Virus record (IMG/VR): IMGVR_UViG_3300030406_003045
Location: 1-33,931 of that record
DNA: 33,931 nucleotides
Origin: a virus
Strand: one strand, 5' to 3'
Under the pieces are notes generated by a model. That model had not been told where the DNA came from and made no database searches. It saw nothing but the letters and a program-made list of their open reading frames with translations. Made by a program: the position numbers and the translations under genes. Numbering within the stretch: the stretch's first letter is position 1; every line of letters starts with the position of its first letter. Shown in pieces: positions 1,825 to 27,386 of the stretch.

Positions 1825-3300
1825 ATGAGCCTAGATGCGATCCCCGACGAGGCGTTACACGAAATCCTCGCACTTCAAGAACAGCTTGCAACTCTACAAA
1901 AACGAGACGCAGCTAAAGATAGGTTTATGGCATTTGCCCATGGAGTCTATGATGATTTCATTGAGGGGAACCACCACCGGATAATCGCAGAAAAACTCGA
2001 ACTTGTTGCACAAGGCAAACTAAAACGCCTGATCATTAACATGCCGCCCCGTCATTCCAAGTCTGAACTAGCTTCATACCTCATGCCTGCATGGTTTTTG
2101 GGAAGGAACCCTAAACTCAAAATCATTCAGGCAACAATGAACACGGAACTAGCCACCCGTTTCGGTAGAAAAGTGCGTGATTTGATTGCTGATCCCATGT
2201 ACACCCAAATTTTCCCAGACACAGACCTTAAACAAGACAGTCAAGCGGCTGGTAGATGGGAGACAAGCAAGGGTGGTGAGTACTTTGCTGCTGGTGTCGG
2301 TGCCGCGATGACGGGTCGTGGTGCTGATTTGTTGATTATTGATGATCCACACTCAGAACAAGACGCTTTGTCGTCCACTGCATATGATCACACTTACGAA
2401 TGGTACACTTCTGGCCCTCGTCAGCGTCTGCAACCGGGTGGTTCTATCATCATTGTGCAAACAAGATGGTCAAAAAAGGACTTAACAGGCCGGTTACTGA
2501 ACGAGCAGATGAAAGACACGATGGCTGACCAGTGGGAACTGATAGAATTTCCTGCAATTTTGCCATCGGGGAACCCTGTCTGGCCTGAATTTTGGAATAA
2601 GGACGAATTACTGTCAGTAAAAGCGTCTTTGTCCCCTACAAAATGGAACGCGCAGTGGCAACAAAACCCCACATCTGAAGAAACTGCCATGGTCAAGCGC
2701 GAATGGTGGCAGGTTTGGACAAAAAATAAGGTTCCTCGACTCAAGTACATACTTCAGAGTTACGATACGGCGTTTTCTAAGAAAGAAACGGCTGACTACA
2801 CAGCGATTACGACGTGGGGGATTTTCGATCCCGACGAGGACAACACTGAACACATCATTTTGCTAGACGCACAGAAAGGTCGGTACAATTTTCCTGAGTT
2901 GAAGGAGGTTGCGGCAGATCAATACGAATATTGGGAACCGGACATGGTGTTGATTGAGGCAAAAGCATCAGGTCAACCGTTGGCAGATGAATTACTCAGG
3001 ATTGACATACCCGTTTTGACGTATTCACCGGGTCGAAGGAAGCGTGGTGGGGGCGTTGACAAGGTTACTCGTATGCACATGGTTGCCCCACTGTTTGAAG
3101 CTGGGCGAGTTTGGGCACCTGAAGAAACTTTTGCGGAAGATGTTATTGAAGAAGTTGCGTCATTTCCTAATGGCGACTACGATGACTACTGTGACAGCAT
3201 GACAATGGCACTTATTAGATTTAGACAGGGCGGCTTTGCGTCGTTGGAAGAAGAAGAGGAAGATCCGTACTACCGGCGCAAAAAATATGAGTATTACTGA
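1825..3300 (+). CDS. terL: Terminase large subunit (packaging ATPase-nuclease)
   Basis: At 491 residues it has the normal length for the motor that pumps phage DNA into the prohead and cuts it. A variant Walker A motif MPPRHSKSEL lies at about residues 73-82, Walker B LLIIDDPH at 169-176 and a TRW coupling motif at 213-215. The RNase H-like nuclease half shows the expected acidic residues D314 (SYDTAF), E378 (VLIEAK) and D454/D457 (DYDDYCDS). The C-terminus is acidic then basic. A stop codon (1810-1812) just upstream in frame fixes the start at 1825 or later. There is no Shine-Dalgarno sequence, and the -10 box is so close that the mRNA may be leaderless. No small-terminase gene is visible next to it. 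The stop overlaps the next ATG by one base. Confidence 0.95.
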   Translation: MSLDAIPDEALHEILALQEQLATLQKRDAAKDRFMAFAHGVYDDFIEGNHHRIIAEKLELVAQGKLKRLIINMPPRHSKSELASYLMPAWFLGRNPKLKIIQATMNTELATRFGRKVRDLIADPMYTQIFPDTDLKQDSQAAGRWETSKGGEYFAAGVGAAMTGRGADLLIIDDPHSEQDALSSTAYDHTYEWYTSGPRQRLQPGGSIIIVQTRWSKKDLTGRLLNEQMKDTMADQWELIEFPAILPSGNPVWPEFWNKDELLSVKASLSPTKWNAQWQQNPTSEETAMVKREWWQVWTKNKVPRLKYILQSYDTAFSKKETADYTAITTWGIFDPDEDNTEHIILLDAQKGRYNFPELKEVAADQYEYWEPDMVLIEAKASGQPLADELLRIDIPVLTYSPGRRKRGGGVDKVTRMHMVAPLFEAGRVWAPEETFAEDVIEEVASFPNGDYDDYCDSMTMALIRFRQGGFASLEEEEEDPYYRRKKYEYY

Positions 3301-3767
3301 TGGATCCTTTATCAACAGGACTGGCTGGTATCGCACTTGTGCAAAAATCGGTAGAGTTTATAAAGTCAAACATAGATACAGCTAATTCAATATCAGATAT
3401 TGCGGGGGCGATAGATGGACTTTTTGCGGGTGAAAAGCAAGTTCAACAAGAAAGGTTTGGTGGCAAAAGCATTCTTGGGCAGACTAAGGATGCTGCGCAC
3501 AGTGTTATCGACGCAAAACTGGCGCAGGAACAACTCCGCGATATGCAGATACTTATCGACAATCGGTTTGGGTACGGCACCTGGAGACAAATCATTGCCG
3601 AAAAAAACAAGCGTATCAGAGAAGAAAAAGAAAGGATCGCGGAAGAAAAGCGGATCGCGCGGCAAAAGAAAAAAGAACGTGACGAAATAATACTGGTTGT
3701 TGGCAGCGTAGTAGCAGTTGTCATGGTGCTTCTTCTAGCCGTTGTCGGCTACGTCAAACTGGGCTAG
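3300..3767 (+). CDS. Coiled-coil protein with C-terminal membrane anchor
   Basis: The 155-residue protein starts MDPLSTGLAGIALVQKSVEF. It has an N-terminal helical part, a charged Lys/Glu/Arg coiled coil (about 100-128) and a single hydrophobic segment near the C-terminus (about 130-152, rich in Val and Leu). The basic cluster before the segment predicts that the bulk faces the cytoplasm. I recall proteins of this architecture directly after terminase in marine phages, without a proven role. It overlaps the terminase stop (TGATG), so it is co-translated with packaging genes. It could tether assembly to the membrane or be an accessory lysis or ejection protein; this is inference. Confidence 0.8.
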   Translation: MDPLSTGLAGIALVQKSVEFIKSNIDTANSISDIAGAIDGLFAGEKQVQQERFGGKSILGQTKDAAHSVIDAKLAQEQLRDMQILIDNRFGYGTWRQIIAEKNKRIREEKERIAEEKRIARQKKKERDEIILVVGSVVAVVMVLLLAVVGYVKLG

Positions 3768-3775
3768 GCTGACGC

Positions 3776-5722
3776 ATGGTAGAAAAAAGATATGAGTATG
3801 GTCGTGTTCCAAGACCCCAGATTGAAACAATGGCTCCAGACCGTAGCGCGTTTCTTGGCACTGGAATCATGGGGCTTTCAGATTTTATCTCAGACATCTT
3901 TACGCCAGCCAGACGCGAAATCATAGAAGAACCAAAAGTAGATTTCTTCACTGCTAAAGAATACCAACAAATAAATCCTGGTTTCTTTGCTGATAGCGTC
4001 GTTGATCCTGATGAGATGATAGCAGTGCAGCAAAGTGCTGGTGTTTATGGTGAGCCGGAGGTTGGCTTTGAATACATGCCTGCTGCAAGATTCGCGTTGG
4101 ACGCTATTGATTATGTGAAAAGTTTTGTTACGGATGAGAAAACACGGGACGCGGCGGCACAGACTGCTGCCAAGATTCCTGGTATTGTGGCTGATGAGCT
4201 AGAAAAACAAAAAGAGTCGGTTGCTGTTGGTAGAACTGTCTATGACCCTGAGACAGGATCGACGACAACATTCGATCCTCTTGTTGCTGGAGTCGGGACA
4301 CTTGCAACAGCTAGGTTGATAAGTGGTATGCCTGATGATGCTGTTGGTGTTATGGGTGGTTCTAAAGCCGTAGGGTACTTTGAAAAACGTAATGATTATT
4401 TCCAATCGCTGTCTGATGACAAGGCGAAAGGAAAAGATGCTGATGAATTTAAAGCCTATAATAAAAGCGGCGGTGGTTTTAAAGATCCTCTTTCTGAAGA
4501 CTCTGCCTTTAGGTTTTTAATAGACTCAAGAAAAGCCAAACTCAAACCAGAGTTTATTGTGGATTTTGAACCAACGAACCCTAATCTTCCTAAGACAAGA
4601 TCAGTTGGAAATAAAACAGAATTAGATGAACTAGAAACTTACGATACACCTGAAAAGGCTCGTGAAAGGGCTGGTTTTAGCCTAACAAACCTGTTGGTTT
4701 TAGAAGACGTACTAGATTTTCCTGAACTTTATAAGCGATACCCGACGCTAAAAAACTATTCTGTACAACGTCTAAGTGCTCATACTGGAGCAAAAGCTTC
4801 TTTTAATGAAGAAACCAAAACCATAAAGCTAAAAGCTTTTGAAGCGGGAGATGAGGACAATGCCGTTTCAAGCTTATTGCATGAAGTGCAGCACGCGATA
4901 GACGATATTGAGGGCGTAGACCCTGGATCTAGCCCCTCGTTGTTTAAACCTTTTATGTTTGAAGAAATGAAAGAGGGGTACAAAGAAAAATTAAGCAAAG
5001 CTAACGACGCTGTTGAAAAGGCTAAAATAGGGCCAACATTTCAGGTTCAAGAACTTTATAAACTATTTAAAAATAAGCCTACTGGAGAAGGCGTATTATA
5101 TGGAAACGAGGCACTTCCGGGTGCCCTTAAAATTTTGCCGGAAGATGAAAGAACAAATGATGTTCTTAAAAACTTACAAAAAGCTTATGAGAACATAAAA
5201 AACAATCCAGAGCTAGAAGCACGCATAAACGCTGGTATTCCTGACGGTGCCGTTCTTGTTGGGGATGGGACAGAATCCGGTATACTTCAGGTGAAGTATT
5301 ATAGAATTATGCAAGACTTGTTTGGAAAAGATACCGAAACATCTCTTTCTAGTAAAACAGATGATAGAACTGATAAACAAAATATTGTCAAAGAAGTATT
5401 TGAGGTAAATAGCCGCCTTGATCAACTTGACGAAATTGAATATGAAGCTTTTGATAAGTACTACAAAACGAAAGGCGAGATAAACGCCAGGGCAGCAGAA
5501 GACTTTTTTAATAGCACAGAGCTTCAAGACTTTTACCCAGAGATTTTATTGCGAATGGCTCAAGAACGTCCTACCGGCGGCAGGTTATTTCCAGCTGATG
5601 CTACTCTTGATGACATCATGAGAGGGATTATACGAAAAGATGAAATAGACAGCCTAGAAGGGTTGAGCAAGGGCGGCGAAGTTAAGAAAGGAATTGGTTC
5701 CATGGCGAGAGAGGTGTTATAA
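3776..5722 (+). CDS. Virion-associated HExxH metallopeptidase-like protein
   Basis: The 648-residue protein contains LLHEVQHAIDDIEG with the zinc-binding HExxH at H369-E370-H373, and GEINARA at 567-573 whose E568 could be the third metal ligand. Upstream, GAKASFNEETKTIKL fits the beta strands preceding the active-site helix. This resembles the metallopeptidase domains known from phage large polyvalent proteins, which travel inside virions; the assignment is from memory. The first ~190 residues are unrelated to peptidases. The C-terminus carries LSKGGEV, a Gly-Gly motif shared with other proteins of this phage. The second half of the gene is much more AT-rich than its neighbours, hinting at a transferred domain. 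It lies between terminase and portal, so it may process head proteins or be injected into the host. Confidence 0.75.
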   Translation: MVEKRYEYGRVPRPQIETMAPDRSAFLGTGIMGLSDFISDIFTPARREIIEEPKVDFFTAKEYQQINPGFFADSVVDPDEMIAVQQSAGVYGEPEVGFEYMPAARFALDAIDYVKSFVTDEKTRDAAAQTAAKIPGIVADELEKQKESVAVGRTVYDPETGSTTTFDPLVAGVGTLATARLISGMPDDAVGVMGGSKAVGYFEKRNDYFQSLSDDKAKGKDADEFKAYNKSGGGFKDPLSEDSAFRFLIDSRKAKLKPEFIVDFEPTNPNLPKTRSVGNKTELDELETYDTPEKARERAGFSLTNLLVLEDVLDFPELYKRYPTLKNYSVQRLSAHTGAKASFNEETKTIKLKAFEAGDEDNAVSSLLHEVQHAIDDIEGVDPGSSPSLFKPFMFEEMKEGYKEKLSKANDAVEKAKIGPTFQVQELYKLFKNKPTGEGVLYGNEALPGALKILPEDERTNDVLKNLQKAYENIKNNPELEARINAGIPDGAVLVGDGTESGILQVKYYRIMQDLFGKDTETSLSSKTDDRTDKQNIVKEVFEVNSRLDQLDEIEYEAFDKYYKTKGEINARAAEDFFNSTELQDFYPEILLRMAQERPTGGRLFPADATLDDIMRGIIRKDEIDSLEGLSKGGEVKKGIGSMAREVL

Positions 5723-5728
5723 AAAATC

Positions 5729-8197
5729 ATGTCACAGTCACAATTACCGCCGGGAGCGATGGTTGACTCTGCAATGGGTGCGGGTGGTACGCCTCAACTC
5801 GAAGAGGGTATCGTCGAAGTTGAAGCGCAGAATCCTGGTATCACGGAAGAAGCGTTAGAGCAAATGATTCTTGATCTTGGCGACGAGGATCAAATAAACC
5901 CCGAAGAAACTTTGCAAGAATTAGGTCACACATCCAATCTTGCAGAATCGTTGGATGACCGCACGCTTGAAGGAATTGCAAGTGAGCTTGTTGATGCTTT
6001 TGAAGATGACCTTGATTCACGCGACGAGTGGGAACAGGCACTATCCAAGGGTCTGGGCTTACTAGGGATTAGTTATGAGGAACGTGATGAGCCATTCTCT
6101 GGCGCGTCCGGTGTAACACATCCACTTATCTCAGAGTCGGTGACACAGTTTCAGGCGCAAGCATATAAAGAAATACTTCCCGCAGCAGGGCCGGTACGCA
6201 CACAGATACTGGGTGCACAAACGCCGGAAGCTGAAGATCAGGCAAAGCGTGTCGAAGATTTTATGAACTACTACATCATGGAAGTGATGGAAGAGTATGA
6301 TCTAGACACTGACCAGATGCTGTTTTATCTGCCCTTGGCTGGTTCGACGTTCAAGAAAGTTTACTTTGATCCGATAAAAAATCGTGCCGTGGCTAAGTTT
6401 CTGCCAGCCGAAGATGTCGTGGTGCCATATTCGGCAACCGATATTCGCACAGCAGAACGTATCACTCACGTTTTGAGAACCTCTGAGAATGATCTGCGTA
6501 AGATGCAGGTCGGTGGGATATACAGGGATATTGAGATATCACCCTCGCAACTTGATGCTGATTCGGATGAACTGAAGGATCGTTTGAATGAGATATCTGG
6601 TGTTCGTCCGTCTTATCAGGACACCGGATACACGCTTCTTGAGATACACACCTATCTTGATATTGAAGGGTTCGAGGACACTGATATGTCTGGTGAGCCA
6701 ACAGGCGTGAAGTTGCCTTACGCTGTAACGATAGATCGTGATAGCAATCAAGTTCTTTCAATTTATAGAAACTTTGAAGAAGAAGATCCAACACGCACGG
6801 CTCTTCAACACTTTGTACACTACAAGTTTTTACCGGGTTTTGGTTTCTACGGTTTTGGTTTGATTCACATGATTGGTGGTTTGTCTCGCGCTGCCACTTC
6901 TATCCTACGTCAGTTGATTGATGCTGGTACGCTGTCGAACCTACCGGCTGGTTTCAAAGCTCGTGGTGTTCGTATTCGTAATGATGATGAACCGTTACAG
7001 CCTGGTGAGTTCAGGGACATTGATGCGCCCGGTGGTGATATTCGTAACGCTATATCACCGCTACCGTACAAAGAACCTTCGGGAACTTTGGCACAGTTGC
7101 TTGGTGTGATTGTTGATAGTGGTCGTAAATATGCGTCGATTGCTGACAACAATACCGGCGACATGAATACTCGCGCACCGGTGGGCACGACGGTTGCATT
7201 GTTGGAACGTGGATCACGAGTCATGAGTGCTATTCATAAACGGATGCACTATTCTCAAAAGCAGGAGTTCAAACTTCTTGCTACCATCATCGGTGATACT
7301 GTTGATGCGTATCCCTATCAGTTGCGTGTGCCTGCACAGGTTGCACCGCAGGACTTTGATGGTCGTGTAGACATCATTCCGGTATCAGATCCAAACATCT
7401 TTTCTGCTGCACAACGTCAGGCTTTGGCACAGACACAGTTACAGATGGCGGTGCAGAATCCTGAGATTCATGATTTACGCGAAGCGTATCGTCGTATGTA
7501 TGCTGCGCTTGAAGTTAAGAATATCGACGAGTTGCTGCCTAAGAAACCTGAACCGCAGCCGCTTGATCCAGCGGCTGAAATGGCGAAGGTTTTTTCTGGT
7601 CAGGATTTCAAAGCGTTCCCACAACAGAATCAAGAAGCACACATTACGGCTTATGTGCAGTTGTTACAGAATCCGATCATGAAAGAAACCAAGCCTGTTA
7701 AGGCAGTGTTGATTTCAAAACTGTTTGAAAGAATAGGTTTTCTTGCACAGCAAGTGGCGACTCAACAAGTGCAAGCACAATTACAGCAGCAGCTACAACA
7801 AATACAGGCGACAGTTACTGATCCTATGATGGCACAACAAATGCAGGCACAGGTGCAGGCACAGGCTCAACAACAGTTGGTGACTTCTATCCCACAAATT
7901 ACGGCACAGCTTATTCAACAATATGCGCCAACAATATCGCCGCCTGAAGCACCTGATCCGCTTGTTGGTATTCGCCAAGCTGAAGTTCAGATTGCAGCGG
8001 CTGATCAACAGCGCAAAACGCAAAAAGACCAGACTGATGCAGTACTCTCAGCCGCACGCATACAACAGTCAGCACAGCAGGCTGAAGATCGTCTGGACAC
8101 TCAGATGGAGATTGCTGAGAAACGTGATGAAACAAACAGAGAGCGCATACAAACGCAAGAAGAGATTGCTGTGATGAAGGAGTTGAACAAGGGATGA
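5729..8197 (+). CDS. Portal protein
   Basis: The 822-residue protein forms the dodecameric ring through which DNA enters and leaves the head. The order terminase, one inserted gene, then a long acidic-start protein matches P22-type portals. Typical stretches are FSGASGVTHPLISESVTQFQ (about 124-143), FYLPLAGSTFKKVYFDP (about 202-218) and PGFGFYGFGLIHMIGGL (about 370-386), which lies in the clip/stem region. The C-terminal 200 residues are a Gln/Ala-rich coiled coil, like the barrel that extends from P22 portals. The acidic N-terminal 110 residues are probably disordered. The stop overlaps the ATG of a tiny gene in ATGA form. Confidence 0.88.
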   Translation: MSQSQLPPGAMVDSAMGAGGTPQLEEGIVEVEAQNPGITEEALEQMILDLGDEDQINPEETLQELGHTSNLAESLDDRTLEGIASELVDAFEDDLDSRDEWEQALSKGLGLLGISYEERDEPFSGASGVTHPLISESVTQFQAQAYKEILPAAGPVRTQILGAQTPEAEDQAKRVEDFMNYYIMEVMEEYDLDTDQMLFYLPLAGSTFKKVYFDPIKNRAVAKFLPAEDVVVPYSATDIRTAERITHVLRTSENDLRKMQVGGIYRDIEISPSQLDADSDELKDRLNEISGVRPSYQDTGYTLLEIHTYLDIEGFEDTDMSGEPTGVKLPYAVTIDRDSNQVLSIYRNFEEEDPTRTALQHFVHYKFLPGFGFYGFGLIHMIGGLSRAATSILRQLIDAGTLSNLPAGFKARGVRIRNDDEPLQPGEFRDIDAPGGDIRNAISPLPYKEPSGTLAQLLGVIVDSGRKYASIADNNTGDMNTRAPVGTTVALLERGSRVMSAIHKRMHYSQKQEFKLLATIIGDTVDAYPYQLRVPAQVAPQDFDGRVDIIPVSDPNIFSAAQRQALAQTQLQMAVQNPEIHDLREAYRRMYAALEVKNIDELLPKKPEPQPLDPAAEMAKVFSGQDFKAFPQQNQEAHITAYVQLLQNPIMKETKPVKAVLISKLFERIGFLAQQVATQQVQAQLQQQLQQIQATVTDPMMAQQMQAQVQAQAQQQLVTSIPQITAQLIQQYAPTISPPEAPDPLVGIRQAEVQIAAADQQRKTQKDQTDAVLSAARIQQSAQQAEDRLDTQMEIAEKRDETNRERIQTQEEIAVMKELNKG

Positions 8198-9728: not shown

Positions 9729-9937
9729 ACCTTGTTGACTTCGTAACCAAATACCGCAAAACTCTGAACAATCGCATAAGTGATTTAACGATTGCTGTTT
9801 CAAGCGGGTCAATAAAAGACATGGAACAGTACCGCAGCATCGTCGGTGAGATACAGGGACTCTCAACCGCATTAGATGAATTAAGTTCCCTGCTAAAAGG
9901 TTTTGACACAGATGACGAAGACGTTACTGGTTCCTGA
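9725..9937 (+). CDS. Small helical protein of unknown function
   Basis: The 70-residue product (MNLVDFVTKYRKTLNNRISD ... LDELSSLLKGFDTDDEDVTG) is predicted to be two amphipathic helices with an acidic tail. It overlaps the upstream stop (ATGA) and runs into the co-chaperonin gene, with AAAAGG in its last codons probably serving that gene. I recall comparable small ORFs just before GroES-like or scaffold genes in phages; no activity is known. Confidence 0.7.
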   Translation: MNLVDFVTKYRKTLNNRISDLTIAVSSGSIKDMEQYRSIVGEIQGLSTALDELSSLLKGFDTDDEDVTGS

Positions 9938-10328
9938 TTACGCAAAAGCGGCGATAGAAGCAAAAAAGAAAGCCGAATCTAAACAGAAAGCAATGGAAAG
10001 AGTACCGCAGCCCACGGGCTGGCGTATTCTTGTTATGCCATATCGAGGGCGCGAAAAGACAGATGGTGGTATTTACATCCCTGATGCTGTCGCAGATCGT
10101 GAGGCACTTGCAACTGTGGTCGCGTATGTCGTGAAGGTTGGGCCACTTGCCTACAAAGATCCTGATAAATTTGGTGCAGACATGGAGCCTTGGTGCAAAG
10201 AGGGCGATTGGGTTTGCATTGGTCGATACGCCGGTTCTCGTTTCAAGCTAGAGGATGGCGAGGTTCGTATAATTAATGACGATGAAGTGATTGCTACAAT
10301 TATAGATCCAGAGGACATCAAAATTTAG
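9912..10328 (+). CDS. GroES-like co-chaperonin
   Basis: From the ATG at 9912 the product has 138 residues. A 30-residue charged helix precedes a Cpn10-like fold: PTGWRILVMPY (35-44), a candidate mobile loop RGREKTDGGIYIPD (45-58), EALATVVAYVVKVGP (64-78), KEGDWVCIGRYAG (96-108) and the closing strand DDEVIATIIDPEDI. In GroES the mobile loop docks on GroEL, and phage versions such as T4 gp31 replace GroES for capsid folding. The gene lies just before scaffold and capsid, the clients it would be expected to serve. A TTG at 9903 is an alternative start. The gene overlaps the end of the previous ORF. Confidence 0.85.
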   Translation: MTKTLLVPDYAKAAIEAKKKAESKQKAMERVPQPTGWRILVMPYRGREKTDGGIYIPDAVADREALATVVAYVVKVGPLAYKDPDKFGADMEPWCKEGDWVCIGRYAGSRFKLEDGEVRIINDDEVIATIIDPEDIKI

Positions 10329-10337
10329 GAGAAGAGT

Positions 10338-11291
10338 ATGTCTGAAGCAGAAGTAAAAGAAAACCAGGAAGAGCTAGACCTCGAAGTTGAGATTGAAGAT
10401 GAACCAGCCCCAAGTGAATCTACCGAAGCTACTCAGGAACAGACCGCAACTGAGGACGTGGGTGAAGAACCAGCAGACCAAACCGAAGCCGTGGAGAGTT
10501 CAGAAAACAATTCGGAAGAATTGTCCGAGTACACGCAGGGTGTCCAAAAAAGGATAGACCGTCTTACTAATAAAAGACGCGAAGCAGAGCGCAGAGAGCA
10601 GGCTGCTCTTGATTATGCTGAGTCAATGAAAACTCAACTTGAACAACTGCGCGAAGAAAATCAGCGCAGCACAACTTCCTTGGTTGGTGAGTTTGGCAGT
10701 CGTGTTGAGTCAGAGTTAGAGGCTGCAAAGATTGCTTATCAAAAAGCACATGAAGAGGGTGATGCGGAGGCTCTGTTTCAAGCGCAGCAAAAAATTAGTC
10801 AAATAGCTATAGACCAGGCAAAGTATCAAGAAGCTAAGAACAGACTTGAGATTGAAAAAGAAGCCCCGGCACAGACTGTTAATCCGGTTCCAGCACAGAC
10901 TCGCGCACCAGTCACTGAGCAAGACCCTGATCCTAAAGCACAAGCATGGGCAGAAAAAAACGATTGGTTTGGAGAAGATCAGTCCATGACATATGCGGCT
11001 TTTGGTATACACCGCAAGTTAGTTGAAGAGGGCTATGACCCCTCTTCAGATGAATATTACGCAGAGATTGATCGTCAGATGCAAGAAGATTTCCCAAGTA
11101 AGTTTGAAAAATCTGCTCCAAAAAGCGGAAAGCCACCCGTTGCAGCAGCGACAAGTTCTTCTTCTCGTTCGTCATCAAAACGTAAAAGAACGATAAAACT
11201 AACGGAATCAGAAAAAGCGATAGCTAGAAAACTGAATGTTCCATACGAAGCTTACGCCAAAGAAGTTGCAAAACTAAATAAGGATAGATAA
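10338..11291 (+). CDS. Capsid scaffolding protein
   Basis: The 317-residue protein is very acidic at the N-terminus (about 1-75, rich in Glu and Gln), then forms a long coiled coil (about 75-170), then a Pro-rich linker, a short conserved block around WAEKNDWFGEDQSMTYAAF (about 209-227) and a basic Ser/Lys-rich C-terminus (about 272-317). An acidic helical protein with a basic C-terminal tail directly upstream of the capsid gene is the normal layout for a scaffold, where the tail binds the coat. The AGGAGA ribosome binding site is strong. Confidence 0.85.
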   Translation: MSEAEVKENQEELDLEVEIEDEPAPSESTEATQEQTATEDVGEEPADQTEAVESSENNSEELSEYTQGVQKRIDRLTNKRREAERREQAALDYAESMKTQLEQLREENQRSTTSLVGEFGSRVESELEAAKIAYQKAHEEGDAEALFQAQQKISQIAIDQAKYQEAKNRLEIEKEAPAQTVNPVPAQTRAPVTEQDPDPKAQAWAEKNDWFGEDQSMTYAAFGIHRKLVEEGYDPSSDEYYAEIDRQMQEDFPSKFEKSAPKSGKPPVAAATSSSSRSSSKRKRTIKLTESEKAIARKLNVPYEAYAKEVAKLNKDR

Positions 11292-12431: not shown

Positions 12432-13340
12432 ATGGCTATTTCTCGCGCACAACTTGCAAAAGAACTCGAACCCGGCCTCAACGCCCTGTTCGGGATGGAG
12501 TATAACCGTTACGAAGGCCAACACGCTGAAATCTTCGACACAGAGGCTTCTGATAGAGCCTTTGAAGAAGAGGTCATGCTGTCTGGTTTCGGTGCTGCTC
12601 CCACTAAGTCTGAAGGTTCAGCAGTAACTTTCGACGACGCACAAGAGGCATACACTGCTCGTTACACACACGAAACAGTAGCGGCAGCTTTCTCCGTAAC
12701 GGAAGAAGCTGTAGAGGACAATCTGTATGATCGTCTCTCATCTCGTTACACTCGTGCGTTGGCACGGGCTATGGCTCACACGAAGCAGGTTAAAGCTGCT
12801 GCAATTCTCAACAATGCTTTCGACAGCACCAAAAAAGGTGGCGATGGCAAAGAGCTTTGTGCAACTGATCACCCGCTTACTAATGGTGGCACACTGGCTA
12901 ACGAACCCAGCACTGCTGCTGATCTCAACGAGACATCTCTCGAAGATGCTCTGATCAGCATTGCTGGTTTTGTTGACGAGCGTGGTTTGATTATCGCCCT
13001 TCGCGGGTCGAAACTAATTATTCCGCGTCAGCTTCAGTTTGTTGCAGAGCGTCTGATGGCTTCAAATCTTCGTACTGCCACGGCAGATAACGACACAAAC
13101 GCCATCCGCAATATGGGAATGTTGCCGGAAGGTTATGTCGTAAACGATTATCTGACAGATACAGATGCGTTCTTCATCAAGACGGACTCACCGAATGGCT
13201 TCAAGCACTTCGAGCGTCTGTCGCTGACAACACAAATGGAGCCTGACTTCGATACAGGCAACATGCGTTATAAGGCGCGTGAGCGTTATAGCTTCGGCTT
13301 TAGCGACCCACGGTGCGTGTTCGGTTCACCGGGCGCGTAA
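12432..13340 (+). CDS. Major capsid protein (Mu gpT-like, HK97 fold)
   Basis: The 302-residue protein forms the head shell. The N-terminal helix with LEPGLNALFGMEYNRYEGQH, the E-loop region GSAVTFDDAQEAYTARY (about 62-78), the spine-helix region with RYTRALARAMAHTKQVKAA (about 105-123) and the P-domain segment GLIIALRGSKLIIPRQLQF resemble the Mu gpT-type coat family. The end RYKARERYSFGFSDPR is typical of the A-domain strands. AGGAG overlapping the upstream stop is an excellent ribosome binding site. It follows scaffold and decoration genes and is followed by a strong terminator, consistent with high expression. Confidence 0.92.
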   Translation: MAISRAQLAKELEPGLNALFGMEYNRYEGQHAEIFDTEASDRAFEEEVMLSGFGAAPTKSEGSAVTFDDAQEAYTARYTHETVAAAFSVTEEAVEDNLYDRLSSRYTRALARAMAHTKQVKAAAILNNAFDSTKKGGDGKELCATDHPLTNGGTLANEPSTAADLNETSLEDALISIAGFVDERGLIIALRGSKLIIPRQLQFVAERLMASNLRTATADNDTNAIRNMGMLPEGYVVNDYLTDTDAFFIKTDSPNGFKHFERLSLTTQMEPDFDTGNMRYKARERYSFGFSDPRCVFGSPGA

Positions 13341-15967: not shown

Positions 15968-16251
15968 TGCCAGCAGTAAGAAAAACTAAAAAAGGATTAG
16001 CCCTTAAACGTTGGTTCAAAGAGGACTGGAAAGACGTTCGTACTGGCAAGAAGTGTGGGCGTAGAAAAGGTGAGAAGAGAGGCACACCATATTGTCGCCC
16101 GTCAAAACGAGTCTCTTCCAAGACACCTAAGACCACCAAAGAAATGACAGCCGCTGAAAAGCGCAGTAGAATAAGACAGAAAAAAAGGTTGGGACAACCA
16201 GCTGGTAAACCTCGTAGAGTCAAAGCAGTCAGAAGGAGAAAGACGCGATGA
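15967..16251 (+). CDS. Small very basic conserved protein (DUF5872-like)
   Basis: The 94-residue product contains ALKRWFKEDWKDVRTGKKCG, RRKGEKRGTPYCRPSKRV and KTPKTTKEMTAAEKR. I recall this combination as a viral family named DUF5872 (name from memory). Two cysteines flank a basic loop. It overlaps genes on both sides. Together with its neighbours it would make a pool of small cationic proteins late in infection, perhaps packaged with DNA or RNA-binding; this is inference. Confidence 0.75.
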   Translation: MPAVRKTKKGLALKRWFKEDWKDVRTGKKCGRRKGEKRGTPYCRPSKRVSSKTPKTTKEMTAAEKRSRIRQKKRLGQPAGKPRRVKAVRRRKTR

Positions 16252-16514
16252 TGAAGAAACGGAAGGGCATGAAAAAGGGCGGCATGATGAAGTCAAAAGG
16301 CTACCGTCGTGGCGGTGCCGTTAAAATGAAGTCCAAGGGTATGAAGCGTGGCGGTGCTGTTCGCATGAAGTCGAAAGGCATGAAACGCGGTGGTGCTGTT
16401 GGTATGAAATCCAAAGGCATGAAACGCGGTGGTGCTACTAAAAAGCCTGCCATGACTCTTGCTCAACTCAGAGCAGCGGCGAAGAAAAAAGGTTATAAGC
16501 TCACTAAAGCATAA
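16248..16514 (+). CDS. Tandem-repeat cationic protein
   Basis: The 88-residue protein consists of a basic start, four 13-residue repeats with core MKSKGMKRGGAV (residues 14-65) and a helical C-terminus with LAQLRAAAKKKGYKL. The repeats are Lys/Arg and Gly rich, like a linker-histone tail or RGG-type nucleic-acid binder. The C-terminal part resembles a SAP-like or short helix-extended-helix segment. The ATG is inside the stop region of the upstream gene (ATGATG), and the stop overlaps the next ATG. A DNA-condensing virion protein is plausible but unproven. Confidence 0.72.
   Translation: MMKKRKGMKKGGMMKSKGYRRGGAVKMKSKGMKRGGAVRMKSKGMKRGGAVGMKSKGMKRGGATKKPAMTLAQLRAAAKKKGYKLTKA
16287..16442 (+). 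repeat. Four 39-bp coding tandem repeats
   Basis: Units begin at ATG triplets 16287, 16326, 16365 and 16404, exactly 39 bases apart, each encoding MKSKG(M/Y)(K/R)RGGA(V/T)x. They are nearly identical in protein but differ at wobble positions, so they are under coding constraint rather than freshly duplicated. Confidence 0.9.
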
Positions 16515-17191
16515 TGCCTTATCTTCAAAGCAATATCCCTCACTTCAAGTGTTGGGTGCGCCGGGAATATACACACAACCATGAGAAATACCATGGCGAG
16601 TTTCTACACGCCATGGCTATTGCTGTAACGACTATGCCATGCAGATCGTTGAGTTTTCAGGTTATATTCACGGGCATCGAAGCAGAAGGCGAGGAAGAGG
16701 ACACTGTTCATGGTGGTGCAATGTGGGCGCGTATGCCTATCACTGCACTGGTGGCAGATGAGCCTTTAGAAGAATGGCCTGTTCCTATGGCTGTTCACGA
16801 TGCACAACCGTGGGATTGTTCATCTTATAATCATGCTGTTTACGTTTTAGATAGAGCTACACCTTGTCCCTGGTTTGCAAAAATAGATGGCGAAATGTTT
16901 CCTGCCAAATATTTGTTTACAGTTGATTATGCAGAGAATGAAATAGCGGATGATCCAGCGCAGCACAAACAAAGTCATGTGTTGCATTTGCTTGATGCAG
17001 GTGAGTGGACAGGAAATATTGTAGCGTTGCCAAACAACCGTGTTAGAGTAACTCATCCAGCTTGGTTTGAAGCAGGAACCGGTGCCCCAGACTTCAAGCC
17101 ATCTGCTCATATACATTATTCTAAAAGTGATTTAGACTATACGTTAGATGTTAACAGGGTATTTGATAACCTTTATAATGAGGAAGAGTGA
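16514..17191 (+). CDS. Conserved marine-phage protein, probable neck/tail region
   Basis: The 225-residue protein starts MPYLQSNIPHFKCWVRREYT and has the segments HGGAMWARMPITALVADEPL, HDAQPWDCSS and DDPAQHKQSHVLHLLD. It is rich in aromatic residues and His and has no membrane helix. I recall this sequence type from many uncultured marine phages, always without function. Its position between head and connector genes suggests a structural or assembly role. Four conserved His/Asp-rich stretches could make a metal site, so an enzyme cannot be excluded. It is coupled to both neighbours. Confidence 0.8.
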   Translation: MPYLQSNIPHFKCWVRREYTHNHEKYHGEFLHAMAIAVTTMPCRSLSFQVIFTGIEAEGEEEDTVHGGAMWARMPITALVADEPLEEWPVPMAVHDAQPWDCSSYNHAVYVLDRATPCPWFAKIDGEMFPAKYLFTVDYAENEIADDPAQHKQSHVLHLLDAGEWTGNIVALPNNRVRVTHPAWFEAGTGAPDFKPSAHIHYSKSDLDYTLDVNRVFDNLYNEEE

Positions 17192-17859
17192 TGGCAACGT
17201 CCAGTTCAAGGAACTTTACTCTTGATGTAGCTGAAGTCATTGAGGAAGCCTACGAACGTTGTGGGTTAGAAGTCAGAACTGGGTATGATGCTGAGACAGC
17301 AAGACGTTCTCTGAACATCATGTTTGCAGATTGGGCTAACAGAGGTGTAAATCTTTGGACAGTTCAGCTAGGCACACAAGCTCTTACCGCTGGTACATCT
17401 ACCTACACACTATCTAACGAAATTACTGACATTCTTGAGGTTGTTGTTCGACGTGACAATACTGATTTTCAGGTGCAACGTATCAGCCGGGGCGAGTACC
17501 AGAATCAACCAAACAAAGCAACAACGGGAAAGCCCTCTAGTTTTTATTTTAACAGACAGATTACACCAGAGATAAATCTGTGGCCTACTCCTGAAAACAG
17601 CACAGATGTTTTGCGTTATTATTTTGTTCAACGCATACAAGATGCCGATGCTTTGGTGAACGATGTAGATGCACCCTTCCGGTTTCTGCCCTGCATGGCA
17701 GCAGGACTGGCATACTACTTGTCTGTTAAACGCGCACCTCAAAGAATACAGGTATTGAAAACAATTTATGAAGAAGAGTTTCAACGTGCGGCAGATGAAG
17801 ATGAGGATCGTGTAGCACTCAAACTTACTCCAAGTATTGATTATCTACGGGTGCGCTGA
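17191..17859 (+). CDS. Head-to-tail adaptor (P22 gp4-like)
   Basis: From the ATG at 17191 (TGATG overlap) the product has 222 residues; a GTG one codon earlier is possible. The N-terminus has helical AEVIEEAYERCGLEVRTGYD and ARRSLNIMFADWANRGVNLW, followed by beta strands (TSTYTLSNEITDILEVVVRR), PSSFYFNRQ and WPTPENSTDVLRYYF. This helix-then-strand order fits adaptors that attach under the portal in P22-like phages. The C-terminal helices end at DYLRVR. It is the first of two adaptor-like genes. Confidence 0.78.
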   Translation: MATSSSRNFTLDVAEVIEEAYERCGLEVRTGYDAETARRSLNIMFADWANRGVNLWTVQLGTQALTAGTSTYTLSNEITDILEVVVRRDNTDFQVQRISRGEYQNQPNKATTGKPSSFYFNRQITPEINLWPTPENSTDVLRYYFVQRIQDADALVNDVDAPFRFLPCMAAGLAYYLSVKRAPQRIQVLKTIYEEEFQRAADEDEDRVALKLTPSIDYLRVR

Positions 17860-18376: not shown

Positions 18377-19024
18377 ATGAGTTTTACTTACAGCGAACTA
18401 AAAACAGCGATTCAGGATTACACTGAGAATACAGAGACATCTTTTGTCACGCACTTGAATGATTTTATCAAAGCGGCTGAAGACAGGCTTTTTAAGTCTG
18501 TGGACTTTGAGATATTCCGTAAGAACGTTACTAGCGCGTTTACGTCCAGTGATCGGTTCTTGACCGTACCCACTGACTTCTTAGCGTCGTTTTCACTGCG
18601 TATTACAACATCAGGTTCCGAACGTTTTCTAGAACAAAAAGACGTTAACTTTTTGCAAACATACACCCCGTCTGCATCCACAACTGGTTTGCCCCGATAT
18701 TATGCAAGGTTCGATGAAAATAATCTTATAGTCGCGCCTACGCCAGATTCTAACTATGCGGTGGAGCTACACTATTATTTCCGACCCGCAAGCCTCACAG
18801 CTGGTGCAGATAGCGGGACGACTTGGCTGAGTACAAATGCGTCTTTTGCTTTGTTATACGGAAGTTTGTTTGAAGCCTACGCTTATATGAAAAGCGATCC
18901 TGATATGTTAAAACTTTATAGTGACAGATTTACAGAGGAACTGTTGCGACTGAAAGATCTGGGTGAGGCACGAGAAAACACAGATGCTTATCGTATGGGT
19001 CTTCCAAGTAGAGAAAGGACATAA
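18377..19024 (+). CDS. Phage adaptor protein (SU10-type)
   Basis: The 215-residue protein starts with TYSELKTAIQDYTENTETSF, VTHLNDFIKAAEDRLFKSVD and FEIFRKN, which is what I recall of the short-tailed phage adaptor family named after phage SU10. Then come strands (RFLTVPTDFLASFSLRI), GLPRYYARFDENNLIVAPTP and a helical C-terminal half with YAYMKSDPDML. Adaptors of this kind form the 12-mer ring joining portal to nozzle. Finding it together with the nozzle-like protein supports a podovirus-like tail. Confidence 0.82.
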   Translation: MSFTYSELKTAIQDYTENTETSFVTHLNDFIKAAEDRLFKSVDFEIFRKNVTSAFTSSDRFLTVPTDFLASFSLRITTSGSERFLEQKDVNFLQTYTPSASTTGLPRYYARFDENNLIVAPTPDSNYAVELHYYFRPASLTAGADSGTTWLSTNASFALLYGSLFEAYAYMKSDPDMLKLYSDRFTEELLRLKDLGEARENTDAYRMGLPSRERT

Positions 19025-21383: not shown

Positions 21384-21734
21384 ATGGCTAATACATTTAA
21401 GGTAAAAACAAACGCGGCAATGCCAGCTTCAGCAGGCACACCGCTTACGCTTTACACCTGCCCCGGCTCTACAACATCTGTTGTCCTTGGCCTGATACTT
21501 TGCAACGTAGGCACAGCACAACACACTGTAGATGTGCAGTTGGTTTCGGACACCAGCGATACAGAAACAAACGAAACAGTGAAGCTGTTGGAGAATGTGC
21601 CGATACCTGTAGGCTCATCGTTAGAGGTTTTGTCTGGCGGTAAAGTTGTATTGCAGGCTACAGATGTTTTAAAAATTGACGCAGATACGGCGGCAAAGAT
21701 TGATGCGACACTGAGCATTATGGAGATTACCTGA
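21384..21734 (+). CDS. Small virion structural protein
   Basis: The 116-residue protein starts MANTFKVKTNAAMPASAGTP and contains TLYTCPGSTTSVVLGLILCN, TVDVQLVSDTSDTE and VPIPVGSSLEVLSGGKVVL. It looks like one beta-sandwich, a type I recall from cyanophage and pelagiphage virions. It is sandwiched between two fibre genes, with the stop overlapping the next ATG. A collar, fibre-cap or fibre-connector part is likely. Confidence 0.75.
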   Translation: MANTFKVKTNAAMPASAGTPLTLYTCPGSTTSVVLGLILCNVGTAQHTVDVQLVSDTSDTETNETVKLLENVPIPVGSSLEVLSGGKVVLQATDVLKIDADTAAKIDATLSIMEIT

Positions 21735-22942
21735 TGGGTTATACTGGCAAGAAGCCCACTAACGTAGTCGATGTCAGCGAAACGCAATCACTTACGGTTG
21801 ATGGCGACCTTACTGTTGACACCAACACTCTGAAGGTAGACAGCGCAAACAATCGGGTGGGAGTGGGGACTGCTTCACCAGCACATGAATTAGTTATACA
21901 AACTGCATCGGCAGACCCTACGTTTCGTATTCATGCCGATACAGATTCATCGCCCGTTCCAGCCCTTGAGCTTATGCGTGGTGCTAATGATACCTTCGGG
22001 GCTGATATTTACACCGATTACAGGTTGTCTGTTAATGCTGGTGATTTGAAGATTGAAAAAGCGGCAAGCGGCACAACAACTACGCCTATGACAATAGATG
22101 CGACTGGACGCTTACTTGTAGCAAAAACTGCCGCTGACAGCGGTGTAGCAGGATTTGAGGCTCGTAACACTGGAGAGACTTTTGCAACTGCATCAGGAAC
22201 AGCACCTTTTTATGCTCATAGATTATCTGATGATGGGGACATAGCAATATTTCAAGCGGCTGGAACAACGGTTGCTAAAATTACTGTGTCATCAAGTGAT
22301 AATATAGCTTTTGGTGCTACCGCCGCTTCTGGTTCAGGACTTTTTTACTTTAGTGGCAGTGGGGGCATACCAATTATTTTGCCAGCCAAAGCAAATTCTG
22401 CTGTGGATAATGAAGTAGATTTAGGACGTTCCGCACAACGCTTCCAAGATATTTTTGCTAGCAACGGAACCATTCAAACATCTGACCAGAATGAAAAGCA
22501 AGATATCGCCAGCTTAACTAGCGCAGAAATTACTGCCGCCAAAGCAATCAGCAAACTATTCAAGACTTTTAAATGGAAAGATAGGGTTGCGTCAAAGGGG
22601 GATAGTGCAAGAACACATGCTGGCGTTATCGCACAAGAAGTGCAATCAGCTATGAGCGATGCAGGGCTTGACGTAACCAAATATGCTTTCTGGTGTTCTG
22701 ATACTTTCTGGGAAAAAGATGTTGAAGTACCAGCAGTAGAAGCTGACGAAGAAAACGGCACCAAAGCAAGGGACGCATTTACCCGTACAGATGTTTATGA
22801 AACAGAAGAGGAAGCACCTGAAGGCGCAACAGAGTGCACCCGTCTTGGCATCCGGTATCCCGAATTGTTGGCGTTCATCGGTGCGGCTACTGAACAGCGT
22901 TTGACCGATATTGAAACACGATTGACTACACTGGAGGGCTAG
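21734..22942 (+). CDS. Tail fibre with S74 self-cleaving chaperone (1)
   Basis: The 402-residue protein opens MGYTGKKPTNVVDVSE, with beta repeats (NNRVGVGTASPAHELVIQ, LRNG-like fibre units) up to about 245. The C-terminal ~150 residues are a peptidase S74 / intramolecular chaperone domain: SDQNEKQDI carries the catalytic pair S250 and K255, followed by HAGVIAQEVQSAM, RYPELLAFIGA and a terminal coiled coil (TEQRLTDIETRLTTLEG). Known S74 domains help fibre trimers fold and then cut themselves off just before the Ser. An unusual acidic, Tyr/Glu-rich insert lies at about 325-370. Confidence 0.85.
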   Translation: MGYTGKKPTNVVDVSETQSLTVDGDLTVDTNTLKVDSANNRVGVGTASPAHELVIQTASADPTFRIHADTDSSPVPALELMRGANDTFGADIYTDYRLSVNAGDLKIEKAASGTTTTPMTIDATGRLLVAKTAADSGVAGFEARNTGETFATASGTAPFYAHRLSDDGDIAIFQAAGTTVAKITVSSSDNIAFGATAASGSGLFYFSGSGGIPIILPAKANSAVDNEVDLGRSAQRFQDIFASNGTIQTSDQNEKQDIASLTSAEITAAKAISKLFKTFKWKDRVASKGDSARTHAGVIAQEVQSAMSDAGLDVTKYAFWCSDTFWEKDVEVPAVEADEENGTKARDAFTRTDVYETEEEAPEGATECTRLGIRYPELLAFIGAATEQRLTDIETRLTTLEG

Positions 22943-24036: not shown

Positions 24037-24210
24037 ATGAATATTACATCAGCACAGTATAGAAAAAATCTTGAGGGTGATAACTACGCTGTAATTGCAG
24101 TTATTGATGGTCAGACATGGGGTGTTCCAATGCAAGTGGGTAATCGCCACTATGACGAAATACTACGACAAGTAGAAGCCGGAACACTAACAATACAGGA
24201 CGCAGACTAA
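24037..24210 (+). CDS. Small protein ahead of fibre gene 2
   Basis: The 57-residue ORF begins MNITSAQYRKNLEGDNYAVI and ends NRHYDEILRQVEAGTLTIQD, AD. The closing NRHY.EILR.VEAG.L.I..AD pattern is one I recall from small phage tail-region proteins, sometimes thought to be assembly chaperones. The ATG comes two bases after the receptor gene and its stop overlaps the next ATG. It is absent from the computed long-ORF list size range but its sequence is clearly coding. Confidence 0.72.
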   Translation: MNITSAQYRKNLEGDNYAVIAVIDGQTWGVPMQVGNRHYDEILRQVEAGTLTIQDAD

Positions 24211-25550
24211 TGGCGTATATAGGCAAAGAACCGGGTAGTGGTCTTCGAGGCAGGTTTATCTACACAGCCACAGCAGGGCAGACTAGCTTTACTGGCGCAG
24301 ACAGCCTTGGGCGCACACTGACATACACAGATGGTGAGTACACAGATGTGTTTCTCAATGGCGTGAAGCTAGACAAAACAGACTACACCGCCACTAGCGG
24401 CACAAGCATCGTGCTGGACAGCGGAGCTTCCGCAGATGACACGCTAGAGATACTGTCGTTTGACACGTTTGGTTTGTTCTCTGGTGAGTTTGCACAAGAT
24501 GTATCTGTTAGCGGTGACTTAACAATCTCTGACAAAGTTGTTCATTCAGGGGACACAAACACCACAATTCGTTTTGCTGATACTGATACGGTCACTATAG
24601 AAACGGCCGGGACAGAGCGTGTGCGTATCGACAGTTCGGGCAATGTCGGCATCGGAACCTCGCCAGCGCAGACACTCAATGTTGCAGGCGCAGGCGCACG
24701 AATATATCTCACAGATGCAAATGAAGATATCGACATGGATGCTTCTGCCAATGGGCAACTGCAACTTGATGGCAACGGCTACGCTGGTGCAATCGCTCTC
24801 AACGATGACGGTATGCAAATTTATCACAATTCTAGTAGTCGTGCGCTAATATTTGGCATTAATGAAACGGAGCGTATGCGTATCGACAGTTCGGGCAATG
24901 TGGCAATCGGAGCGACATCAACAACAAAAAAACTTGAGGTGCGTGGACAGGGACTATTTACGTCAGATGGAAACTATAGAGCTAGTAATACCGGAGTTTT
25001 GAACGTATCTCCAAGTGGCAATCTAGGTATTGGATTCGGTGGAGATACTGATGCAAATTATTTTGCCACAATTTTCCACAATGCCAGTAACACGGCAGTC
25101 GGTTCTATTTTTGTAGATGCGTCAAGCACATCGTATTCCACATCTTCAGACTATCGCTTAAAAGAAAATGTCGTTGAACTTACGGGTGCTATTGATCGCG
25201 TTAAGACACTAGCCCCAAAGCGGTTCAATTTTATAACTGACCCCGACAATACAGTTGATGGTTTTTTAGCGCATGAAGTCACGGCTGTACCTGAAGCAAT
25301 CACTGGAATCAAAGACGAAACAGAGGCTATTGGTGATGTAAAAGACGCCGATGGCAATGTTGTAGAAAGCAAAGTGGTCAAACCAGAAACGCTTGAAGAT
25401 AGTTACATTTGGACAGAAACGGGGACACGACCTGTCTATCAAGGAATTGACCAAGCTAAGTTAGTTCCTGTACTAACTGCCGCACTGCAAGAGGCCATAG
25501 CAGAAATCGAAACTCTGAAAACTAAAGTTGCGGCACTAGAGGCTGGATAA
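24210..25550 (+). CDS. Tail fibre with S74 self-cleaving chaperone (2)
   Basis: The 446-residue protein has an N-terminal domain (AYIGKEPGSGLRGRFIYTAT, then LTYTDGEYTDVFLNGVKLD) that is a common fibre-base fold in marine phages, a shaft with two RIDSSGNV.IG units, and a C-terminal S74 domain: SDYRLKENV with S313 and K318, HEVTAVPEAITG, then coiled coil (LQEAIAEIETLKTKVAALEA). The N-terminal GVKLD.TDY module probably attaches to the tail. Its S74 domain is not closely similar to the one in fibre 1. Confidence 0.86.
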   Translation: MAYIGKEPGSGLRGRFIYTATAGQTSFTGADSLGRTLTYTDGEYTDVFLNGVKLDKTDYTATSGTSIVLDSGASADDTLEILSFDTFGLFSGEFAQDVSVSGDLTISDKVVHSGDTNTTIRFADTDTVTIETAGTERVRIDSSGNVGIGTSPAQTLNVAGAGARIYLTDANEDIDMDASANGQLQLDGNGYAGAIALNDDGMQIYHNSSSRALIFGINETERMRIDSSGNVAIGATSTTKKLEVRGQGLFTSDGNYRASNTGVLNVSPSGNLGIGFGGDTDANYFATIFHNASNTAVGSIFVDASSTSYSTSSDYRLKENVVELTGAIDRVKTLAPKRFNFITDPDNTVDGFLAHEVTAVPEAITGIKDETEAIGDVKDADGNVVESKVVKPETLEDSYIWTETGTRPVYQGIDQAKLVPVLTAALQEAIAEIETLKTKVAALEAG

Positions 25551-25982: not shown

Positions 25983-27386
25983 GTGACTACTACAACGACA
26001 TATAGCAACAATCTTGGCATTACTCTAATCGGCACGGGTCAACAGGCTGGAACGTGGGGCACAACCACTAATACAAACTTTGAGTTGCTAGATGAAGCAA
26101 TCAACGGTGTTGTAACTCTGACGCTTTCAGCTACTGGCTCAACAGGTAGCCCTAACGATCAAACGATTGCAGATGGAACGTCTTCCACACTACGTCACAA
26201 GTACATTAATGTTACGAGTGGTAGCGATTTGGGCGGCACAGTTTACCTTCGCTTACTTGATAACGCGGTAGAAAAGATTGCAATCATTAAAAACAGCCTA
26301 GCGGGTAGCCAGTCACTTGTTTTGATACAAGGGACATACGATGCTGCCAATGTTTTAACTTTAGCAAATGGTAAAACGGTTGTAGCAAAGTTCGACGGGG
26401 GAGGATCGGGTGCAACAGTTGTTAATGCGCTGGGTGATTTAGCTATTGATGCTGTAGATAATGTTTCTGTTACAGCAAACAACAGCACAAATGAAAGTGT
26501 GTTTCCCGTTTTTGTTGATGGTGCTACCGGGGCACAAGGTCTAGAAAGCGACACAGGTTTTACCTACAACCCAAGCACAGGTGTTTTAACAACCACTTCT
26601 GTTACGGGTAATCTTACAGGTAACGTCACAGGTAATGTTACCGGTAATGTTACAGGTAACGTCACAGGTAATGTGACCGGTAACACAAGCGGCTCATCTG
26701 GGAGTTGCACTGGTAATTCTGCAACAGCTACTGCACTTGCAAGTGCGCGAACAATTACTTTGGCAGGAGATGTTACATCTAGTGCCGTATCGTTTGATGG
26801 CAGTGCAAATATTACAATCACCACCGCACAAGCAAATAACTCTGTTGATTTGACGACGCACACAACAGGAAATTATGTAGCTGGGATTAGCGGTGGCACA
26901 GGTGTAACAGCAAGTGGTTCTGGTAGTGAAGGGGCAACTGTTACTTTAAGTATCGGTCAAGATGTCCAAACCACTGCAAGTGTTCAGTTTACTTCGCTTG
27001 GTGTGGGCGCGTCTGCATCTGGTACTGCGGGTGAGATAAGAGCTACGAATGATATCACAGCGTTCTTTTCTTCTGATGAACGACTTAAAGAAAACATTTG
27101 TTATATCGAAGAAGCTCTAGACAAAGTGGCACAGATTCAGGGCGTGGAGTTTGACTGGACAGACGACTACATGCAGAACCGTGGGGGTGAAGACGGGCTG
27201 TTTGTACGCAAACACGATGTTGGGCTAATTGCCCAGGATGTAGAAAAAGTGTTGCCAGAAGTAGTTGCCAATCGAGAAGATGGTTACAAAGCCATCAAGT
27301 ATGATCGTGTAGTAGCTTTGCTGGTCAATGCTGTGCATGAGCTAACAAACAAAGTTGAAGATCTTGAAGCTAAACTGGAGAGTTAG
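25983..27386 (+). CDS. Tail fibre with S74 self-cleaving chaperone (3)
   Basis: The 467-residue protein uses a GTG start at 25983 with GAGGA a few bases upstream. The N-terminal TYSNNLGITLIGTGQQAGTW then GTTTNTNFELLDEAI is typical of fibre N-termini. The shaft includes a GNVT tandem repeat (209-232), and the C-terminus is an S74 domain with SDERLKENI (S364, K369), KHDVGLIAQDVEKVLPEV, YDRVVALLVNAVHEL and a coiled coil. It is the third S74 fibre in the cluster, each with a different N-terminal half. Confidence 0.86.
   Translation: MTTTTTYSNNLGITLIGTGQQAGTWGTTTNTNFELLDEAINGVVTLTLSATGSTGSPNDQTIADGTSSTLRHKYINVTSGSDLGGTVYLRLLDNAVEKIAIIKNSLAGSQSLVLIQGTYDAANVLTLANGKTVVAKFDGGGSGATVVNALGDLAIDAVDNVSVTANNSTNESVFPVFVDGATGAQGLESDTGFTYNPSTGVLTTTSVTGNLTGNVTGNVTGNVTGNVTGNVTGNTSGSSGSCTGNSATATALASARTITLAGDVTSSAVSFDGSANITITTAQANNSVDLTTHTTGNYVAGISGGTGVTASGSGSEGATVTLSIGQDVQTTASVQFTSLGVGASASGTAGEIRATNDITAFFSSDERLKENICYIEEALDKVAQIQGVEFDWTDDYMQNRGGEDGLFVRKHDVGLIAQDVEKVLPEVVANREDGYKAIKYDRVVALLVNAVHELTNKVEDLEAKLES
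26607..26678 (+). repeat. Six 12-bp GGTAAYNTNACM tandem repeats
   Basis: Units start at 26607, 26619, 26631, 26643, 26655 and 26667, encoding GNLT once and GNVT five times, with a partial seventh unit. Copies 2 and 5 are identical, as are most of 3 and 4, so slippage or recombination can change the copy number and shaft length without breaking frame. Confidence 0.9.

What the first reader, a model, noticed from the sequence alone, without database searches (positions are those of the whole stretch)
3776..5722. HExxH metallopeptidase-like virion gene between terminase and portal
HEVQH (H369, E370, H373) plus a downstream GEINAR (E568) gives a plausible full zinc site of the gluzincin type. Its placement between terminase and portal is not that of a standard prohead protease and no other protease is visible near the capsid genes. 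It could be an unrecognised maturation protease or a host-directed enzyme carried in the head and injected.
Basis: partly seen in the sequence, partly recalled or inferred. Interest (0 to 1): 0.75.

Follow-up and report, generated by a model that had tools for sequence, protein, structure and literature searches.

The report
Phage zinc-peptidase in head-gene cargo slot
A gene sitting among the head genes of a podovirus-like phage encodes a probable zinc-dependent protein-cutting enzyme of a family already known from proteins that phages carry into the cell with their DNA; it is probably injected cargo rather than a capsid-building protease, which makes it a new branch of a known kind.

Summary
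ORF 3776-5722 (648 aa) has HEVQH at 369-373 and GEINAR at 567-572. Across 56 aligned homologues, H369, E370, Q372, H373, Y562 and E568 are invariant. In 28 homologues selected only by the neighbouring LPD23 domain, 27 keep HExQH and one has HExxxH. AlphaFold2 puts HEVQH on a helix after a three-strand sheet and E568 on a later helix, the published zincin layout of phage polyvalent-protein metallopeptidases.

Family: a stand-alone, derived LPD23-metallopeptidase module. Elsewhere it sits inside giant phage proteins, one of them (Pseudomonas phage H66) described as structural. The window's protein belongs to a supported clade found between terminase and portal.

Maturation protease is unlikely: related head-gene blocks lack the gene. 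The interval is empty in 20 of 50 portal-anchored contigs that also show terminase, and cultured relatives give no hit.

Most likely it is a virion-carried, injected peptidase. Injection, zinc binding, catalysis and substrate are all untested.

By-product: the interval behaves as a variable cargo slot, and many unrelated proteins in it end in a similar 'GG-hydrophobic' tail, possibly a sorting tag.

The parts
3776..5722 (+). The gene: 648-aa LPD23-like plus zincin-like metallopeptidase protein
3863..4345 (+). N-terminal region (about residues 30-190), conserved only in homologues that also have the peptidase domain, mostly those in the terminase-portal interval
   Evidence: HMM search, alignment
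4346..4561 (+). Derived LPD23-like region (about residues 191-262); below Pfam's threshold here, but it aligns with the LPD23 of homologue L129
   Evidence: L129 residues 175-230 hit PF18838 with 62.5 bits
4691..5545 (+). Zincin-like metallopeptidase domain (about residues 306-590)
4880..4894 (+). HEVQH (residues 369-373): predicted zinc ligands H369 and H373, general base E370
   Evidence: invariant; helix 360-379
4934..5464 (+). Helical insert between the two active-site helices (about residues 387-563); length varies widely among homologues
   Evidence: (HExxH to GE distance 31-243)
5474..5491 (+). GEINAR (residues 567-572): predicted third zinc ligand E568
   Evidence: E568 invariant; start of helix 566-584
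5666..5719 (+). C-terminal tail SKGGEVKKGIGSMAREVL (residues 631-648), similar to tails of unrelated proteins in the same interval of related phages
1825..3300 (+). Terminase large subunit
   Evidence: phrog_38, Terminase_6C
3300..3767 (+). 155-aa ORF of unknown function with a hydrophobic C-terminal stretch
5729..8197 (+). Portal protein
   Evidence: phrog_1216
9903..10328 (+). GroES-like co-chaperonin (Cpn10)
10338..11291 (+). Probable scaffold (inferred from its place upstream of the capsid gene)
   Evidence: phrog_28737 of unknown function
12432..13340 (+). Major capsid protein
   Evidence: Phage_capsid_4, phrog_371

Best explanation
The gene encodes a stand-alone zincin-like metallopeptidase of the LPD23-MPTase kind found in phage polyvalent proteins. 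It is made late with the head genes, enters the virion as internal cargo, and is delivered into the host with the DNA. There it cuts a host protein (or an incoming phage protein) to favour early infection. H369, H373 and E568 bind zinc and E370 activates water. Shown here by computation: homology, invariant catalytic residues, predicted zincin layout, head-gene context, and absence of the gene from related head modules. Inferred: zinc binding, proteolysis, late expression, packaging, injection and any target.
For: Invariant H369, E370, Q372, H373, Y562, E568 in 56 homologues. In 29 loci fetched by LPD23 alone, 28 carry the domain and 27 of those keep HExQH. Predicted sheet, HExxH helix and Glu helix, the layout given for polyvalent MPTases in PMC5512222. 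Relatives match LPD23, DUF6782 putative metallopeptidase, SprT-like and MPTase-PolyVal. Viral structure hits are led by phage proteins, several named for polyvalent-associated domains. The same module lies in giant proteins of F116-like phages, described as structural in H66 and compared with the injected N4 RNA polymerase (PMC5217972). The gene is tightly packed between terminase and portal, and 18 slot homologues including the window form one clade. The interval is a variable accessory slot.
Against: No virion proteomics exist for this protein. PDB matches for the compact model are led by metallopeptidases but are not significant (E 0.056-0.13). The window protein itself passes no Pfam threshold. 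The protein has no other recognised effector domain that would point to a target.
Confidence: 0.6

Rival explanations
1. It is a processing enzyme for packaged phage proteins: it cuts itself, or another internal protein, before or after injection, as proposed for polyvalent-protein peptidases.
For: Iyer et al. [quoted passage not shown] Homologues range from about 340 aa to several thousand aa.
Against: The window protein is a solo form with no second recognised effector domain to release. The tail shared by slot proteins also occurs in loci where no peptidase was found, so it is unlikely to be this enzyme's own cleavage site.
Confidence: 0.2
2. It is the phage's prohead maturation protease, cutting scaffold or capsid protein during head assembly.
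For: It lies in the head-gene block and no other prohead protease was found there.
Against: Related head modules lack it: the terminase-portal interval is empty in 20 of 50 portal-anchored contigs that show terminase and holds this domain in two; none in 158 further loci; cultured relatives give no tblastn hit. The fold is not that of known prohead proteases (general knowledge: those are serine-type).
Confidence: 0.06
3. The metal site is present but the protein is not a peptidase: a structural or packaging role, or another HExxH chemistry.
For: In phage N4 the HExxH-bearing region of the virion RNA polymerase is required for encapsidation and that protein is packaged unprocessed (PMC5512222). 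HExxH enzymes that are not peptidases exist (cited in PMC12633501).
Against: The predicted general base E370 is invariant together with the ligands, which a purely structural site would not need.
Confidence: 0.13

Closest known systems
Zincin-like MPTase domains of phage polyvalent proteins with LPD23 (Iyer et al. 2017, PMC5512222; Pfam PF18838, PF18818, PF20573)
   Same: HExxH helix followed by a helix with a conserved Glu after a three-strand sheet; LPD23 (or a derived version) directly upstream; phages with terminase and portal.
   Different: Stand-alone protein rather than part of a giant one; LPD23 too diverged for Pfam's threshold; its own clade in the terminase-portal interval; carries the slot-type C-terminal tail.
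Giant polyvalent proteins of F116-like Pseudomonas phages, phage 8P and ctsTn925
   Same: Same peptidase module with HExQH and GExEAR.
   Different: There it is one domain of a protein of several thousand residues.
EBPR podovirus 3 gp3
   Same: Short protein near the genome end with a weak LPD23 and the same HEIQH...GEMDAR module.
   Different: About 335 aa, outside the slot clade in the tree.
HTVC023P-type pelagiphages and CRP-901-type roseophages
   Same: Same terminase, portal and, mostly, GroES, scaffold-like and capsid gene order.
   Different: The slot is empty or holds other ORFs; no copy of this peptidase found.
Phage N4 virion RNA polymerase C1 domain
   Same: HExxH zincin-like domain in a virion protein that is injected (PMC5512222; PMC12633501).
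   Different: Different MPTase type as far as known here; no direct comparison was run.

Membership tests
Zincin-like MPTase of polyvalent proteins | HExxH on a helix after a three-stranded sheet | tested here: met
   AlphaFold2 models, (prediction, not a solved structure)
Zincin-like MPTase of polyvalent proteins | Conserved Glu on the following conserved helix | tested here: met
   E568 invariant, in helix 566-584
Zincin-like MPTase of polyvalent proteins | Zinc bound by two His and one Glu with suitable geometry | not testable with these tools
Zincin-like MPTase of polyvalent proteins | Significant match to a curated model | tested here: not met
   P0001 itself: only DUF6782 at E 0.081. Relatives do match
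LPD23-MPTase module | LPD23 directly upstream of the peptidase | tested here: inconclusive
   P0001 has no Pfam LPD23 hit, but its residues 191-262 align with the LPD23 of L129; 24 of 56 relatives match
Polyvalent protein | Several domains with different activities in one polypeptide | tested here: not met
   Only an LPD23-like region and the peptidase are recognised
Injected virion protein | Found in virions and delivered into the host | not testable with these tools
   Only indirect: head-gene position, and a relative's giant homologue described as structural
Prohead maturation protease | Present wherever the same head module is used | tested here: not met
Prohead maturation protease | Match to a known prohead protease family | tested here: not met
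Active peptidase | E370-dependent proteolysis | not testable with these tools
   needs expression and assay

The most novel reading that the evidence does not exclude
The terminase-portal interval of these podovirus-like phages is an exchangeable cargo slot, and a short C-terminal 'GG-hydrophobic' tail, present on this peptidase and on many otherwise unrelated slot proteins, is a sorting tag that loads cargo into the capsid (or docks it at the portal) for injection.
Probability: 0.3. Interest if true: 0.78.

Novelty: new member of a known kind. Interest (0 to 1): 0.42.

Why it matters
It places a group of unannotated phage genes in a family predicted to be injected, and argues against a hidden capsid protease. 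If the slot and the shared tail are what they seem, they would give a simple sequence handle for finding injected proteins in uncultured phages, and a testable answer to how such phages choose which proteins to package.

Tried and rejected
Prohead protease: rejected on presence and absence across related head modules. Known defence-system part: PADLOC found nothing. Identification by sequence in the PDB: nothing with the single sequence or the profile. Full-length Foldseek against PDB gave only helical-bundle noise, probably because of the long insert, so a compact homologue was modelled instead. The conservation seen in the first homologue harvest was partly circular because LLHEVQHA was a search seed; it was re-tested with loci selected by LPD23. 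A search with the N-terminal alignment failed because it is too divergent. The tail as this enzyme's own cleavage site: rejected because it occurs in loci where the domain was not found. A literature search for a conserved C-terminal motif in ejection proteins returned nothing, which is weak evidence because the library is partial.

Full report
OBSERVATION. The ORF at 3776-5722 encodes 648 aa, with HEVQH at 369-373 and GEINAR at 567-572. Shuffles of its own residues almost never give HExxH and never gave it with a downstream GExxAR. The window is a whole 33.9-kb IMG/VR virus record. The gene lies after terminase large subunit and a 155-aa ORF, with gaps of 8 and 6 nt to its neighbours, directly before portal, in a block that continues with a GroES-like Cpn10, a probable scaffold (inferred from position) and the major capsid protein. 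dN/dS against the three closest relatives is about 0.26-0.31.

FAMILY. The window protein alone passes no Pfam cut-off, but relatives are plentiful. In a 56-row alignment the invariant residues are H369, E370, Q372, H373, Y562 and E568. In a 39-row alignment of the domain, H, E, Q and H of HExQH, one Gly, one Tyr, and G, E, A and R of GExxAR are invariant; rows there were picked as having both motifs. The distance from HExxH to the Glu motif runs from 31 to 243 residues, so the window's 198-residue gap is a variable insert and not an oddity. Of the 56 members, 24 match Pfam LPD23, 23 match DUF6782 (putative metallopeptidase), four match SprT-like and three match MPTase-PolyVal.

AVOIDING CIRCULARITY. 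The first harvest used LLHEVQHA as a seed. I therefore fetched viral loci with an LPD23 sequence that contains no part of the peptidase. Of 29 loci, 28 carry this domain after LPD23; 27 keep HExQH and one has HEAAGH, the HExxxH variant that Iyer et al. also describe. The 29th (L365) has a different HExxH stretch. The Glu motif, as GExxAR or GEVESR, was found in those with enough downstream sequence to look. LPD23 is rare in bacterial genomes (1 of 369 and 2 of 389 including the seed genomes), as expected for a mobile-element domain.

STRUCTURE. AlphaFold2 on the full protein gives a confident core: three strands, the HEVQH helix 360-379, a long helical insert, and the E568 helix 566-584. A compact homologue shows the same order at mean pLDDT 82. 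This is the arrangement that Iyer et al. give for polyvalent zincin-like peptidases (PMC5512222). Viral-library Foldseek hits are led by phage proteins, several of them named for large-polyvalent-protein-associated domains. PDB hits for the compact model are led by metallopeptidases (MATCAP, 4l7a), but not significantly (E 0.056 to 0.13). Ligand distances were not measured.

WHERE ELSE IT OCCURS. The same module lies inside giant proteins of F116-like Pseudomonas phages, phage 8P and phage ctsTn925; the H66 copy is described as structural (PMC5217972). A tree of the domain puts the window and 17 other slot proteins into one clade (support 96/95) apart from the embedded forms; one slot protein, L129, falls outside on a long branch.

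NOT A MATURATION PROTEASE. Cultured relatives of the portal share most of the head-gene order. CRP-902, Caulobacter RW, Planktothrix Pag-Yong1 and Alcaligenes QDWS535 have no annotated protein gene between terminase and portal. HTVC027P, HTVC023P, 023Pt_psg01 and DSL-LC04 have other ORFs there, in DSL-LC04 one with a PcfJ domain. None of these gave a tblastn hit to the window protein, although that search reaches only moderately distant relatives. Of 80 loci fetched by portal, 50 show terminase; by my count of the table, 20 of these have less than 300 nt between the genes and two carry the peptidase. A second set of 158 portal-anchored loci, drawn from closer relatives of two pelagiphage-type portals, has no copy of the domain. 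A protease needed for this type of head would not be distributed like that.

MECHANISM. Best reading: a late-made, packaged and injected peptidase acting early in infection. Shown by computation: family, invariant site, predicted fold, context, and absence from related head modules. Inferred: zinc, catalysis, late expression, packaging, injection, target. The main rival is processing of itself or of other packaged proteins; next is a metal site without proteolysis; last is head maturation.

THE SLOT AND THE TAIL (by-product). The proteins in the slot of relatives are largely unrelated to each other (47 clusters from 101 proteins), yet many end alike: peptidase homologues with AEGGVISL...RGPRGVGSLAPIARNMYRTMVS, and unrelated proteins with KAKGGLVQMIDIFEVA, MANGGLTNTIPP... 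or YARGGLATMFTRRR. With a pattern written after looking, 18 of 34 non-peptidase slot families have it in the last 45 residues, against 2.4 expected from internal windows of the same proteins. In a held-out set only four families were new; 3.5 of them had it against 0.1 expected. With a looser pattern, portal (0 of 97), scaffold (0 of 22) and capsid (0 of 13) lack it, but terminase (25 of 57), GroES (15 of 19) and on average 43% of unassigned downstream families match, so the pattern alone is not specific. In cultured pelagiphages similar tails end slot proteins (HTVC027P gp41, HTVC023P gp30) and large late proteins (HTVC027P gp85, HTVC023P gp83). A sorting tag is the reading I would test; it is unproven.

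Noticed in passing
Window 5666-5719; C-termini of slot proteins in L038, L048, L061, L112, L125, L147, L160 and others: A similar 'GG-hydrophobic' C-terminal tail on this peptidase and on many otherwise unrelated proteins encoded between terminase and portal; enriched over internal windows, but the pattern is loose.
   Followed up: partly
Terminase-portal intervals of L095-L174 and L175-L332: The interval is a variable accessory slot: empty in some contigs, holding unrelated ORFs of up to about 1600 aa in others; most have no Pfam match, a few hit DUF6884 or PcfJ.
   Followed up: partly
Window 16248-16514: 88-aa basic protein made largely of repeats of KSKGMKRGGAV, the same GG-hydrophobic motif in tandem.
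   Followed up: no
Window 9903-10328: GroES-like co-chaperonin (Cpn10) in the head module, conserved in this position in relatives.
   Followed up: no
Window 21734-22942, 24210-25550, 25983-27386: Three tail-type proteins each with a Peptidase_S74 intramolecular chaperone domain.
   Followed up: no
Window 17188-17859 and 18377-19024: Two SU10-type adaptor proteins two genes apart.
   Followed up: no
Window 16514-17191: Protein matching phrog_3704, annotated ferredoxin / host takeover, inside the structural gene block.
   Followed up: no
L372, ORF from base 19: A homologue with HEAAGH (HExxxH) in place of HExxH, the active-site variant described for polyvalent peptidases.
   Followed up: no
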